Below, piece by piece: positions 3,719 through 6,611 of a DNA stretch of 9,685 bases. The notes beneath the pieces are model-generated. The model made no database searches and was not told the DNA's origin. It worked only from the letters and a program-made list of their open reading frames with translations. Positions within the stretch are counted from its first letter, which is position 1. Each line of letters opens with the position of its first letter. The translations under genes were made by a program, and so were the position numbers. Source of the stretch: Clostridia bacterium. Lineage in GTDB: Bacteria > Bacillota_A > Clostridia > TANB77 > CAG-508. The DNA lies in NCBI GenBank assembly GCA_017621295.1, contig JAGATI010000122.1, forward strand, positions 1-9,685, read 5' to 3'.

Positions 3719-4114
3719 TTAACTTTGTCCCATCATTGACAGTTTGTTTGATATTGTTTGTCCTATCTTGTTACCATCTATATAAATACTTGTTGTTATA
3801 GTTTTTGGACCTTTTATATATTGCTCCACTACCTCATTTACAAAGCTGTTACTACTTGCTACTATTTCACAAACTTCTTCATAACTGTATTTTCTGTCTT
3901 CATCTTGACTATGTCCATATTCCCATAACCAAACATGCATTAATTCATGTTTTAAAGTTCTTATTTTATTAACATTATTATTTAATAACCATATTTTATT
4001 AGTTTTATAAAAAGTTAATCCTAATGTATAATCATTCTTTTCTTCATTATTTATTGTCGCTTCATCTACTTCTTCAATTGTCCATTCTGTATTATTACAT
4101 TTAAATTTAAACAT
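3719..4114 (-). CDS. Putative zinc metallopeptidase (HELMH), with a C-terminal 'IDG' strand segment
   Basis: 131 residues. The segment LKHELMHVWLWEYG carries a gluzincin-type HExxH motif (H56, E57, H60) and a later helix SYEEVCEIVASSN supplies a possible third ligand (E80 or E83), an arrangement seen in ImmA/IrrE-like and other small phage metallopeptidases. The N-terminal 50 residues look like beta strands (FKFKCNNTEWTIEEV, GLTFYKTNKIWLLNN), as expected before the active-site helix. The C-terminus, KTITTSIYIDGNKIGQTISN, resembles a short strand-turn motif frequent in phage structural proteins and is not part of a usual peptidase core. No signal peptide, so it is probably cytoplasmic. It lies just before the terminase small subunit, where a role in head or packaging protein processing is possible but unproven. 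Start ATG is preceded by AAAGGAG. Substrate unknown. Confidence 0.65.
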   Translation of the reverse strand: MFKFKCNNTEWTIEEVDEATINNEEKNDYTLGLTFYKTNKIWLLNNNVNKIRTLKHELMHVWLWEYGHSQDEDRKYSYEEVCEIVASSNSFVNEVVEQYIKGPKTITTSIYIDGNKIGQTISNKLSMMGQS

Positions 4115-4557: not shown

Positions 4558-4809
4558 TTGAAAAAGTATTGTATTACATATGATTTAAATAAATCTGATA
4601 AGAATTACGATGGATTGTATGAAGCAATTAGAAATTTTGATTACTTTCACGTAATGGATTCTGTTTGGTTTATTAAAACTAACTTTACTGTCACAGAAAT
4701 TTATAATAAATTAAAACCTCAAATAGATAGTAATGATTATTTATTTATTTCTGAAATTACTTCCAATTACTATGGATATTTAAATAAAGATGTTTGGAAT
4801 TGGTTGTAG
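4558..4809 (+). CDS. Cas2-like ferredoxin-fold protein (orphan, 'SinR family' type), phage moron
   Basis: An 83-residue protein, the only convincing plus-strand gene here. It opens MKKYCITYDLNKSDKNYDGL, where a first strand ending YD (D9) matches the Cas2/VapD-like ferredoxin fold. It continues with a helix (YEAIRNFD), a strand (MDSVWFIKTN), a second helix (VTEIYNKLKPQID) and SNDYLFISEIT, ending DVWNWL. This order is that of the small stand-alone proteins often named SinR-family or Cas2-domain proteins in bacteria and phages. Some Cas2 relatives (VapD) are ribonucleases; activity here is unknown. Start is TTG at 4558, decided by the excellent AAAGGAGGTG seven bases upstream. It has its own promoter and terminator and lies opposite the late operon, the hallmark of a moron. 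There is no CRISPR array or other cas gene in the window. Confidence 0.8.
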   Translation: MKKYCITYDLNKSDKNYDGLYEAIRNFDYFHVMDSVWFIKTNFTVTEIYNKLKPQIDSNDYLFISEITSNYYGYLNKDVWNWL

Positions 4810-4817
4810 TTGTTATC

Positions 4818-4848
4818 AGCTAGTACATTTGTTGTACTAGCTTTTACT
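4818..4848 (+). terminator. Intrinsic terminator of the Cas2-like gene
   Basis: A perfect 9-bp stem AGCTAGTAC (4818-4826) / GTACTAGCT (4834-4842) with a 7-nt loop, starting eight bases after the TAG stop codon and followed on the plus strand by TTTACTTA. On the minus strand the hairpin is followed by GATAACAAC, with no T tract, so it should stop only plus-strand transcription and let late minus-strand transcripts pass. Confidence 0.7.
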
Positions 4849-5188
4849 TACATATAACATCAATTCTCTCAACCTCTTCATTTTTTAATATTTCTGATAT
4901 TTCCTCTACAATTTCTGATTTTTTTACATGGCCACATGAACCTTTTTTACCATCACCACAAAAAAGTTTTATTAAAGTTTCAGATAACTCTTTAATAGTT
5001 GTATTTTTTAAGTCATCTACTGTAATACCTTTAGCAATACTAGAACCATCAAGTGTTACTTCTATTTTTCTATTACCAAGTGTACAAATTAATTCGTTTG
5101 CTCTTTCTAGTAAATCTACTAGTTCTTTCGCTTTCTTTATTTCCTCATCAAAATTTGATTTTACTTTTACTTCAAATTCACTTACCAT
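4844..5188 (-). CDS. Phage protein of unknown function, first gene after the structured RNA region
   Basis: A 114-residue acidic protein that I do not recognise. Residues 5-37 form a long charged helix (EVKVKSNFDEEIKKAKELVD and on), then a strand-turn-strand KIEVTLDGSSIAKGI (41-55), helices DDLKNTTIKELSETLIKLF, a Cys/Gly turn CGDGKKGSCGH (C77, C85) and a C-terminal helix plus strand ending IDVICK. The VTLDGSSIAKGI stretch is similar to IYIDGNKIGQTI in the metallopeptidase-like protein downstream. The ATG follows GAGGG at good spacing. It lies between the structured RNA and the moron; its stop codon is one base from the moron's terminator stem. There is no membrane segment or signal peptide. 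Confidence 0.65.
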   Translation of the reverse strand: MVSEFEVKVKSNFDEEIKKAKELVDLLERANELICTLGNRKIEVTLDGSSIAKGITVDDLKNTTIKELSETLIKLFCGDGKKGSCGHVKKSEIVEEISEILKNEEVERIDVICK

Positions 5189-5434
5189 TTTATTTCCCTC
5201 TTTTCTTTTAATTTATAAACACTATGTAATGATATATTAGATAGACTGATTAGGTCTTAACACGATTAATTTGTAGCATTAACCAGCTTTTTACTTTTTT
5301 CGGCTCAAGTATTAACCGTTCTTTTTCAATGTTTAGTGTCATAACATTAAGGCTTTAGAGAACCTTTGTCTTTTAAATAATCACAAATAAAAAACTTTTT
5401 TAATATATCACTACATACTATTTATAAAAAACAA

Positions 5435-5464
5435 AAGAAGCATATACTTGTATATATACTTCTT
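5435..5464 (-). other. 12-bp hairpin followed by a U-rich tract (RNA domain or terminator)
   Basis: Minus-strand AAGAAGTATATA (5464-5453), loop TACAAG, TATATGCTTCTT (5446-5435), with one G-U pair, followed by TTGTTTTTT. It could be a helix of the structured RNA or an intrinsic terminator, though the stem is AU-rich and the T run is interrupted. If it terminates, the 3' domain downstream would belong to a separate or read-through transcript. Confidence 0.45.
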
Positions 5465-5755
5465 CAGGAACTCCTTCTACTGCTTTGGTAGATGAGTAAA
5501 TTATATTAATTTATCTAGTATAATTAATAACTAAATTCTCTATAAAGTTAAAAACATTAGAATCTTTATGCGTTCGTCCGTCTGCTCGTTTTTATTTGCA
5601 GTACCCGACACAAATCCTCTATAATCTGCTCTTTCGCTTGACCGCATAGTAGCATTTCACTACTCAAAAAACTTTATAGAATAGAGAGAGCTAATCTCTA
5701 TATTATAAAAATAATGTAGTAGCTAATTACATTACTGTTATAATCTTAATCTAAA

Positions 5756-5785
5756 AAGAGCTAACCGCCTTTGCAGTTAACTCTT
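5756..5785 (-). other. 13-bp hairpin with T5 at its 3' side (RNA helix or terminator)
   Basis: Minus-strand AAGAGTTAACTGC (5785-5773), loop AAAG, GCGGTTAGCTCTT (5768-5756), merging into a run of five T (5757-5753). It is the strongest hairpin in the window, with two G-U pairs on the minus strand and two A-C mismatches if read on the plus strand. Its form fits an intrinsic terminator, yet it lies inside a longer run of paired elements, so a structural helix is at least as likely. Confidence 0.55.
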
Positions 5786-5871
5786 ACTGAATACCTTTTG
5801 TTATTTGGCAAGTGCTATATTACAGTCTCTAGAAAACTTTATTGTAATATACATTGCAAAGTTCTGTATTG

Positions 5872-5892
5872 TAGTATCTATCTTAGATACTA
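5872..5892. other. Perfect 9-bp inverted repeat at the predicted late transcript start
   Basis: TAGTATCTA and TAGATACTA separated by three bases. On the minus strand it would be the first hairpin of the transcript, a few bases after the predicted start. As DNA it is also a near-perfect palindrome in operator position, so a repressor or regulator site is an alternative. Confidence 0.5.
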
Positions 5893-5901
5893 ATTTATAT
5901 T

Positions 5902-5933
5902 AATATATTACCACATTGTTTTAGAAAAAACAG
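5902..5933 (-). promoter_or_regulatory. Candidate late promoter upstream of the structured RNA
   Basis: On the minus strand TAATAT (5910-5905), or the overlapping TATATT (5907-5902), is a -10-like box after GTGG. No good TTGACA box exists 17 bases upstream, where the sequence is a T run around 5930-5924. A weak -35 next to upstream direct repeats is what one expects of an activator-dependent promoter. The transcript would start near 5898-5895. Confidence 0.4.
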
Positions 5934-5936
5934 TTA

Positions 5937-5969
5937 CTTTTCGTGTATCTTTTGTGTATTTTTCGTGTA
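5937..5969 (-). repeat. Three 11-nt direct repeats, likely operator of the late regulator
   Basis: Minus-strand units TACACGAAAAA (5969-5959), TACACAAAAGA (5958-5948) and TACACGAAAAG (5947-5937), exactly 11 bases apart, so about one DNA turn each, with consensus TACACRAAARR. They begin two bases after the stop codon of the ArpU/RinA-like gene and end just before the -35 region of the candidate late promoter. Binding by that regulator is inferred from position and from what is known of RinA/ArpU-controlled late promoters, not shown. Confidence 0.6.
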
Positions 5970-5971
5970 CT

Positions 5972-6460
5972 TTATATATTTATTACATCTTTCATCTTTT
6001 TTAATGCTTCTATCTTTATTCTTTTTAATCTTTCTATTGTAATTTTATTTTCATCTCTGTACTTTTCATTAAATCCTATCTCTACTTGTACCCATTTCCA
6101 ATTATCTATACATTTACAATCTATTACATAATTCTCTTCTTCTGTTAAAGAACCTAACGCTATTTCTATTTGCTTTACTTGTTGTTTTACAGGTCTTATT
6201 CGAGATTGGTCATCTTTAATCCATTGTTTAACCATTTCTCTTGTAACTTCATGTGCTACAATTTCTTTTTCTACAGGACTATTATTATTTCTTGCCTTAG
6301 GCATTCCATATGTATCCGGTTGTGTATCTACAAATTCTTTTGCAATTTCATCATCTGTCATTGTATCTAAGCATTCTTGCCAATATCTACATCGTTCTTC
6401 AGATGTTTCTATTTTGCCTTTGTTTTTTCTATAATCTCTTAAAGCCTTTTCTATATTCAT
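5972..6460 (-). CDS. ArpU/RinA-like late transcription regulator (sigma-70 region 4-like)
   Basis: 162 residues from the ATG at 6460. The N-terminal part is helical and charged (NIEKALRDYRKNKGKIE), followed by a middle segment DTYGMPKARNNNSPVEKEIV of the 'GMP...SPVE' kind typical of this group. The C-terminus from about residue 105 (LTEEENYVIDCKCIDNWKW and on to ITIERLKRIKIEALKKM) has the layout of sigma-70 region 4: LTEEE helix, WKWVQVEIGFNEK as scaffold and turn, and a basic recognition helix. Such proteins activate the promoter of the phage packaging and structural genes in staphylococcal (RinA) and enterococcal (ArpU) phages. The gene is the last before the structured RNA and the terminase module, as expected. 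The start is set by GGAGG at 6466-6470; an upstream TTG (6478) has no site. Confidence 0.8.
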   Translation of the reverse strand: MNIEKALRDYRKNKGKIETSEERCRYWQECLDTMTDDEIAKEFVDTQPDTYGMPKARNNNSPVEKEIVAHEVTREMVKQWIKDDQSRIRPVKQQVKQIEIALGSLTEEENYVIDCKCIDNWKWVQVEIGFNEKYRDENKITIERLKRIKIEALKKMKDVINI

Positions 6461-6470
6461 TTGTACCTCC

Positions 6471-6611
6471 TCACTCAAATTCTATAATATCAAATTCTAC
6501 CTGTTCTAAAATCCTCTCTGGTGTTCCTTCTTTAAATACTCCTACTTTCTTTCCTTCTTCGTTAAAGTAACTGCATATAAAATATTTATCAAATTTTTCG
6601 TATGTGTCCAT
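6471..6611 (-). CDS. Small phage protein, 46 residues, unknown function
   Basis: This short gene fills the gap between the membrane protein and the late regulator. It starts at ATG 6611 after GGAGG with seven bases spacing, reads MDTYEKFDKYFICSYFNEEG then KKVGVFKEGTPERILEQVEF and ends DIIEFE. It is acidic, with a probable strand-rich N-terminus (FICSYFNEEGKKVGVF) and a helix (PERILEQV). Its TGA stop overlaps the ribosome binding site of the regulator gene, so the two are translationally linked. I do not recognise it. Confidence 0.7.
   Translation of the reverse strand: MDTYEKFDKYFICSYFNEEGKKVGVFKEGTPERILEQVEFDIIEFE

What the first reader, a model, noticed from the sequence alone, without database searches (positions are those of the whole stretch)
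5240..5897. Candidate large structured non-coding RNA in the late-gene leader
A phage genome this tightly packed rarely leaves about 780 bases without a gene. The stretch holds at least ten inverted repeats, a long-range 10-bp helix enclosing a GC-richer core with a nested 6-bp helix, and a 3' domain of several hairpins. Large ornate RNAs (ROOL, GOLLD) are known in prophages of Bacillota and relatives and have similar length. This may be a member, a divergent branch, or a separate class.
Basis: partly seen in the sequence, partly recalled or inferred. Interest (0 to 1): 0.85.

Follow-up and report, generated by a model that had tools for sequence, protein, structure and literature searches.

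The report
Modular structured RNA leader of phages
The long gene-free stretch before this phage's packaging genes is a mosaic RNA leader that ends in a conserved long hairpin, which other phages also carry, in some of them beside the puzzling giant RNA called ROOL, and which may cut such RNAs free from the phage's messenger RNA.

Summary
In detail: window 5189-5971, minus strand, has no ORF of 50 aa and folds far better than shuffles. The reading as one large ornate RNA is not supported: no ROOL or GOLLD match at E<=10, and a terminator-like site lies 110-140 nt after the inferred start. The leader looks like a mosaic: promoter-like region, terminator, an orphan core (5537-5749, no convincing homologue), then conserved pieces: hairpin A (5503-5530), a two-hairpin module (5429-5500), and a 23-bp stem (5404-5426 with 5214-5236, one conserved G.G mismatch) around a 167-nt insert. 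A model built without the window finds this stem at 50.7 bits. Elsewhere the stem shows compensatory changes and lies ahead of different terminases. ROOL accompanies it in 2 of 25 stem loci, and 3 of 5 ROOL loci carry it. In relatives loops A and B pair in 19 of 20 cases; the window keeps A, not B. Best guess, inferred only: the stem is an RNase III-type site separating cargo RNA from late mRNA. There are no wet data.

The parts
5972..6478 (-). ArpU-like late transcription regulator gene (phrog_36, 'transcriptional regulator') just upstream of the leader
5937..5969 (-). three 11-nt direct repeats (TACACGAAAAA, TACACAAAAGA, TACACGAAAAG), possible operator of the regulator
   Evidence: read from sequence; similar layout by eye after the regulator gene in 7 relatives; function inferred
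5905..5915 (-). extended -10-like sequence TGTGGTAATAT, inferred late promoter; start near 5897
   Evidence: shared position in 7 relatives by eye; not found by the sigma-70 scan, which needs a -35 box
5873..5891 (-). 5' hairpin AGTATCTAAGATAGATACT
   Evidence: fold z -3.9, 1 of 100 shuffles as good; similar hairpin at the same place in L012, L013, L015, L016 by eye
5756..5785 (-). intrinsic-terminator-like hairpin T1 (13 bp, U-rich tail)
   Evidence: 2 such sites found in 4700-6100 against 0.1 expected, this being one; z -6.1, 0 of 100
   Evidence: structure; no convincing homologue; ROOL and tRNA (L029, L065) or a tRNA (L001) lie upstream of hairpin A elsewhere
5503..5530 (-). hairpin A, loop ATACTAGATA
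   Evidence: conserved in relatives; weak on its own by energy (z -0.55, 25 of 100 as good)
5429..5500 (-). two-hairpin module C (CATCTACC..GTAGAAGGAG; GAAGAAGTAT..GCTTCTTTTG)
   Evidence: only other copy in the fetched loci is in L029, next to the stem there too; z -4.4, 0 of 100
5404..5426 (-). 5' arm of the 23-bp stem
   Evidence: model R1, 50.7 bits, built without the window
5237..5403 (-). insert enclosed by the stem (167 nt); matches none of the other inserts at E<=1e-4
5214..5236 (-). 3' arm of the 23-bp stem; G5418 and G5222 face each other as the conserved G.G mismatch
4844..5188 (-). first gene after the leader (114 aa, unknown)
   Evidence: no PHROGs or Pfam match; no relative in viral contigs

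Best explanation
The stretch is the 5' leader of the late (packaging) operon, read on the minus strand from a promoter just after the ArpU-like regulator. It is a mosaic of RNA modules, not one RNA. Shown by comparison: its 3' part (hairpin A, module C, the 23-bp stem) consists of elements shared with other phages, and the stem is kept as an RNA stem on the leader strand. Inferred: the stem is a processing and insulating element. Two helical turns of duplex would be cut, most likely by RNase III, which frees the upstream RNA and the enclosed insert and leaves the late mRNA with a short defined 5' end next to its Shine-Dalgarno site. In some other phages the same stem lies downstream of ROOL, skipping-rope RNA or tRNAs; here the upstream slot holds an orphan structured core. 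T1 would keep the leader short until the late regulator or an RNA signal allows read-through.
For: Single-arm searches recover the other arm: 7 of 7 contigs (checked in 44, 49, 64), 11 of 13 (of the other two, one stored stretch begins 12 nt before the arm and one hit lies in a 1.5-kb open frame), 9 of 12 genome loci (8 and L046; the other three lie in open frames of 804-1008 nt), 12 of 13 (the other, L064, lies in a 3-kb open frame). The searches overlap: one search leaves 26 distinct elements. Stem covariation in those 26, chosen by sequence alone: 92.2% of cells paired (shuffles at most 91.2), 8 pairs with change on both sides (at most 7), 18 such cells (at most 16); the position left open in both patterns is T-A 19, A-T 6, C-G 1, all paired. 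A second set of 23, partly chosen by pairing: 15 such pairs (at most 14), 46 cells (at most 21). G-U cells 69, A-C cells 14 of 650, and model R1 scores the window at 50.7 bits on the minus and 19.2 on the plus strand, so the leader strand is the RNA strand. ROOL with the stem: L029 (partial) and L058, found through the stem; L065, L066, L068, found through ROOL; skipping-rope with the stem: L055. One ORF picked downstream in each of 10 loci: 8 terminase large subunit or terminase, 1 portal, 1 terminase small subunit.
Against: No transcript, cleavage or protein data. One of four shuffle measures is not exceptional (extra pair types: 35 of 1000 shuffles reach it), and relatedness of the sequences is not controlled. 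The stem is more conserved in sequence than RNase III should need (recalled), and its G.G mismatch (25 of 26) suggests a specific binder. Six of eight regulator relatives (L001, L002, L011, L013, L014, L016) show no stem within the sequence held (L002 ends about 480 nt after the gene). Two of five pattern-found ROOL loci (L067, L069) show none in the 3 kb held. Of 25 loci found through the stem, only L029 and L058 show ROOL, though many hold little upstream sequence.
Confidence: 0.5

Rival explanations
1. The 3' elements are a cis-acting translational regulator: stem and hairpins hide or present the ribosome-binding site of the first late gene and are bound by a phage protein or the ribosome.
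For: The stem ends about 3-14 nt before a Shine-Dalgarno-like site in the loci read for this (window, L012, L015, L017, L021, L041); in a number of relatives the A-B interval holds a CCTCCTTTC-like sequence, complementary to a Shine-Dalgarno site (by eye); the conserved G.G mismatch suggests a specific binder.
Against: The window lacks a canonical hairpin B and the CCTCCTTTC stretch (by eye); the Shine-Dalgarno site lies outside arm 2; stems also occur in tandem, so that one of them is not next to a gene (L030, L035).
Confidence: 0.22
2. One large ornate RNA of a new class: the whole 700-nt leader folds and works as a unit.
For: Very low folding energy of the whole leader; length like ROOL; same kind of genomic place as ROOL in some phages.
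Against: Internal terminator-like site; the conserved modules occur elsewhere in other combinations and without the core (L012, L022, L029, L065); no Rfam match; no convincing homologue of the core.
Confidence: 0.12
3. The stem is a DNA-level element: a recombination hot spot or cassette boundary by which phages swap inserts and leader modules.
For: Conserved arms around changing inserts; identical 84-nt inserts in L019 and L029 with different flanks; recurrent insert classes; tandem or second copies (L030, L035, L032).
Against: Compensatory changes and the excess of G-U over A-C cells point to RNA. Both roles may coexist.
Confidence: 0.1
4. The stem is a packaging (cos/pac) or replication signal.
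For: Lies upstream of terminase genes.
Against: Shared by phages with terminases of different PHROGs families; about 1.5 kb upstream of the small-terminase candidate (by position only; phrog_2412, unknown function) in the window; RNA-type covariation.
Confidence: 0.04

Closest known systems
ROOL RNA (Rfam RF03087)
   Same: Phage late-leader or tRNA-island place; in five fetched loci (L029, L058, L065, L066, L068) the 23-bp stem of the window lies downstream of a ROOL RNA
   Different: No ROOL match in the window at E<=10; the window's core is shorter and unrelated in sequence; the stem and hairpins A/B lie outside the ROOL match
Skipping-rope RNA (Rfam RF02924)
   Same: Closing stem with a very variable insert; found in the same leader as our stem in L055
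   Different: Different sequence and hairpin order; the 23-bp stem in L055 is a separate element; the window has no match
GOLLD RNA (Rfam RF02032, accession recalled)
   Same: Large phage RNA near tRNAs (passages of PMC12286853)
   Different: No match in the window
RNase III processing stems of phage and ribosomal RNA precursors (recalled)
   Same: Two-turn duplex around or between RNAs that must be separated
   Different: Conserved primary sequence and a conserved G.G mismatch; cleavage not shown

Membership tests
ROOL (RF03087) | Rfam covariance model match | tested here: not met
   window 5150-5990 at E<=10: no ROOL; in the same library L058 and L065-L069 score 282-327 bits
ROOL (RF03087) | forms RNA-only nanocage | not testable with these tools
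   needs cryo-EM
GOLLD (RF02032, accession recalled) | Rfam covariance model match | tested here: not met
Skipping-rope (RF02924) | Rfam covariance model match | tested here: not met
   the model does match L055
Shared 23-bp leader stem (described here) | match to a covariance model built without the window | tested here: met
   50.7 bits; E 2.3e-7 in 260,708 bases, 8.4e-9 in the window alone with filters off
Shared 23-bp leader stem (described here) | compensatory changes in the stem across loci | tested here: met
   with the limits given there
A-B kissing hairpins (described here) | hairpin A with [AG]CTAG[AG] loop | tested here: met
   window 5503-5530
A-B kissing hairpins (described here) | hairpin B with a loop complementary to A | tested here: not met
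   no TCTAGT or CCTAG found upstream of the stem; the only other CTAG of the leader (q140), in the loop of a hairpin by eye, could give 5 bp
Intrinsic terminator | GC-containing hairpin followed by a U run | tested here: met
   5785-5756
RNase III substrate | cleavage in the stem | not testable with these tools
   needs RNA ends with and without RNase III
tRNA | ARAGORN or Rfam tRNA call in the window | tested here: not met

The most novel reading that the evidence does not exclude
Late leaders of these phages are an RNA-cassette system. An activator-driven promoter and early terminator feed a slot that can hold ROOL, skipping-rope RNA, tRNAs or orphan structured RNAs; kissing hairpins and one or more 23-bp stems then fold, protect and release the cargo and start the late mRNA. 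The window's core (5537-5749) would be a new class of cargo RNA in the slot that some other phages fill with ROOL.
Probability: 0.25. Interest if true: 0.85.

Novelty: new variant of a known kind. Interest (0 to 1): 0.62.

Why it matters
ROOL forms cages, can be as abundant as 16S rRNA and has no described function (passages of PMC12286853). A conserved stem and a kissing-hairpin pair that occur in phage late leaders with and without ROOL give small, testable handles on how such RNAs might be made, cut out and tied to late gene expression, and suggest that ROOL's place can be filled by other RNAs.

Tried and rejected
ROOL or GOLLD membership: rejected. The weak S15-leader match (20.4 bits against a cut-off of 39.5) and cow-rumen-4 match (21.2 against 48.5) are below threshold and were taken as chance. 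A 17-nt pattern from the core in viral contigs gave 5 hits with unrelated flanks and a second gave 4 such hits. BLASTN of 5525-5900 against 195 genomes gave five weak hits of 22-58 nt; all five lie in open frames of 270-3021 nt and were taken as chance. The core against 385 genomes gave one 31-nt hit in a 1728-nt open frame. Named phages and plasmids: no match to the leader; the L017 leader gave 18 weak partial hits in phages (best E 2e-3) and a ROOL from L066 none, so no cultured example was found.

A hammerhead-like string in L019 was considered and dropped: no Rfam match and the expected cleavage site is absent (by eye, motif recalled). A micro-ORF on the other strand across hairpin A in L019 and L036 was considered; by eye its frame is not kept in L012, L018 or L022, while the hairpin is. 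The automatic hairpin finder missed several A and B hairpins, so pairs for one search were picked by hand from the listing (17 elements plus the repeats L034 and L052) and L065, L001, L046 by pattern: 22 rows, 20 distinct. Where that listing offered several candidates (among them L012, L015, L018, L019, L029, L030, L035, L036, L037, L062) the others were dropped. B had been listed by the pattern TCTAGT or CCTAG, which limits what B could be, though not which A it goes with. Seven of 26 elements gave no A-B pair: the window (A only), L020, L026, one of two in L030, L040, L055, L058. One row (L041 at 1264) was dropped as an artefact. Rows were chosen partly by pairing, so one search is the fairer test. 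The arm-2 pattern with one mismatch also hits 9 of 385 genomes when read backwards, so it is no evidence without its partner arm; the arm-1 control is 1 of 195. One search repeated the arm-1 search around another genome: 7 of 117, six of them genomes and one the starting genome, with no new element. With default filters model R1 missed L046; with filters off it gives 28.6 bits there, E 7e-4. The model search over the phylum used the stricter filters.

Full report
What was checked. The finding concerns 5240-5897. No ORF of 50 aa lies wholly inside. The RNA folds far better than shuffles (z -5.4; z -9.5 from the inferred start). Of eighteen tiles of the minus strand, the one mostly in the leader gave z -6.6; the next best, in coding sequence, gave -3.9 (10 shuffles each). 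The interval given misses the last arm of the best-supported helix.

Is it ROOL or GOLLD? No. Rfam 15 on 5150-5990 with E up to 10 gives only weak matches below their cut-offs; no tRNA was found. The same library does find full-length ROOL in other loci, so it works on this kind of sequence.

How relatives were found. The regulator protein led to two, then three, virus contigs and five contigs of MAGs titled Clostridium or Clostridia. Seven of these eight (not L011) share the first 80-110 nt of the leader with the window, and by eye these have the same layout of about 11-nt direct repeats and an extended -10-like sequence. Two of them, L012 and L015, also align in the 3' part of the leader (E 3.1e-7 and 2.2e-9). 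That alignment exposed the two arms TATAAATAGTATGTAGTGATATA and TATATCATTACATAGTGTTTATA, which pair as a 23-bp stem with one G.G mismatch.

The stem is a family. Searching with one arm at a time recovered the other in 7 of 7, 11 of 13, 9 of 12 and 12 of 13, checked; the searches overlap and leave 26 distinct elements. Inserts between the arms run from 9 to 167 nt. In those 26, chosen by sequence alone, 92.2% of cells pair (1000 shuffles: mean 89.2, at most 91.2), 8 pairs change on both sides (at most 7), 18 cells do (at most 16), and the number of extra pair types, 18, is reached by 35 shuffles. The position left open in both patterns is T-A 19, A-T 6, C-G 1, always paired. In a second set of 23, including variants from ROOL loci, 15 pairs change on both sides (at most 14 in shuffles), but here some pairing was required for selection. 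G-U cells outnumber A-C cells 69 to 14 of 650, which assigns the RNA to the leader strand. A model built from nine other loci finds the window's stem at 50.7 bits on the minus strand and 19.2 on the plus strand. Loci taken as negatives (L003-L010, L038, L042, L043, L070-L073) gave nothing below E 1.

Spread. By arm-1 pattern 12 of 195 genomes of one family match, 9 of them with a partner arm (control 1 of 195); by arm-2 pattern 13 of 385 of the order, 12 with a partner (control 9 of 385). With the model and stricter filters, 1 of 299 genomes drawn from the phylum, and that one is the starting genome. So the stem may be confined to phages of one order, on limited sampling; the hosts of the virus contigs are not known. 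No named phage with it was found.

Company. Counting duplicates once, the stem searches gave 25 loci including the window. Rfam was run on each of them or on a duplicate, often with little upstream sequence. ROOL is in 2 (L029, cut by the contig end, and L058), skipping-rope in 1 (L055), a tRNA in 4 (L029, L032, L055, L058). Of five ROOL loci found by a ROOL pattern, all five confirmed by Rfam, three show the stem downstream (L065, L066, L068) and two do not (L067, L069). One ORF picked downstream of the stem in each of ten loci is terminase large subunit or terminase (8), portal (1) or terminase small subunit (1), of different PHROGs families (in L015 the best family is of unknown function and the terminase match is weak). 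The element is thus tied to the late-leader position, not to one packaging module.

Kissing hairpins. Upstream of the stem, 19 of 26 elements have a recognisable hairpin A ([AG]CTAG[AG] loop) and hairpin B. With L065, L001 and L046 added there are 22 pairs, 20 distinct. In 19 of 20 all six loop positions pair (18 by Watson-Crick pairs only); 20,000 permutations never reach this. The combinations among the 22 rows are ACTAGA/TCTAGT 8, GCTAGG/CCTAGC 10, ACTAGG/CCTAGT 2, ACTAGG/TCTAGT 1, ACTAGG/CCTAGC 1. The selection was by hand, B had been listed by a pattern, and relatedness is not controlled. In a number of loci the interval between A and B holds a CCTCCTTTC-like sequence (by eye). The window keeps A but has no canonical B; the only other CTAG of the leader lies, by eye, in the loop of a 9-bp hairpin in the 5' part and could give five pairs.

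Anatomy of the window. Direct repeats 5937-5969; extended -10 5905-5915; 5' hairpin 5873-5891; terminator-like T1 5785-5756 (2 sites found against 0.1 expected). A strict script finds a terminator in the first 420 nt of the leader in 5 of 8 leaders, the window included; that of L014 lies further downstream. The other three (L013, L015, L016) have AT-rich hairpins with U runs by eye. Then come the orphan core 5537-5749, hairpin A 5503-5530, module C 5429-5500 (its only other copy in the fetched loci is in L029), and the stem with insert 5214-5426. In L029 and L065 the order is ROOL, tRNA, A, B, stem, with tRNA-like stretches before A (L065) or between B and module C (L029) (by eye with Rfam). 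In L012 and L022 T1 is followed closely by A. The window's core thus occupies the slot that holds ROOL and tRNA in L029 and L065. It has no convincing homologue, so nothing can be said about its class.

Mechanism. Shown by comparison: structure, conservation, covariation, strand, position. Inferred: promoter and operator use, termination at T1, processing at the stem, release of cargo. I prefer RNase III-type processing because the duplex is two helical turns long, lies at the border of non-coding RNA and first late gene, and occurs in tandem or as second copies (L030 and L035, L032; L044 and L058 by eye). The conserved G.G mismatch and arm sequence argue for an extra specific binder, which keeps the translational-regulator rival alive.

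Novelty. No Rfam 15 model matched the stem or the A-B pair in the loci scanned. Paper searches and passages of PMC8040213 and PMC2864571 named no such element; supplements and subscription papers could not be read, and the former paper reports thousands of candidate structured RNAs that may include parts of it.

Noticed in passing
L012, L015, L018, L019, L022, L036, L044, L046, between hairpins A and B: A CCTCCTTTC-like stretch, complementary to a Shine-Dalgarno site and like the 3' end of 16S rRNA (recalled), recurs between A and B; absent from the window (by eye).
   Followed up: partly
window 5937-5969 and the same place in L001, L002, L012-L016: Three or four direct repeats spaced about 11 nt between the phrog_36 regulator gene and an extended -10-like sequence: a candidate operator for this regulator family.
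   Followed up: partly
L030, L035, L044, L058; also L032 1696-1787: More than one 23-bp stem element in a leader: two in L030 and L035, a second model hit in L032, and by eye in L044 and L058.
   Followed up: partly
L012, L058, L040, L019, L029 (inserts of 84-86 nt): One insert class inside the stem recurs in loci with and without ROOL; L019 and L029 inserts are identical although their flanks differ. Other classes: L015/L036/L041, L018/L044, L022/L053, L017/L034/L052.
   Followed up: partly
L066 2454 onwards: The insert enclosed by the stem looks tRNA-like (GGAGTTCGAATCCC arm) in a ROOL and tRNA-array leader.
   Followed up: no
L002, L013-L016, just after the promoter: A second short structured element in leaders of relatives, with AAGTCC or similar and followed by a terminator-like hairpin; may be an antitermination or small RNA module.
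   Followed up: no
L065, L046, L067, upstream of ROOL or hairpin A: A similar hairpin element (GTTTCA..GAGATTGTACTT..AACAGTCTC) upstream of ROOL in L065 and L067, and upstream of hairpin A in L046 (by eye).
   Followed up: no
window 4558-4809 (+): An 83-aa gene of phrog_1090 stands on the opposite strand among the late genes.
   Followed up: no
L019 about 3760-3960 (-): The slot between terminator and hairpin A holds another structured-looking stretch, partly like a tRNA on the other strand (by eye).
   Followed up: no
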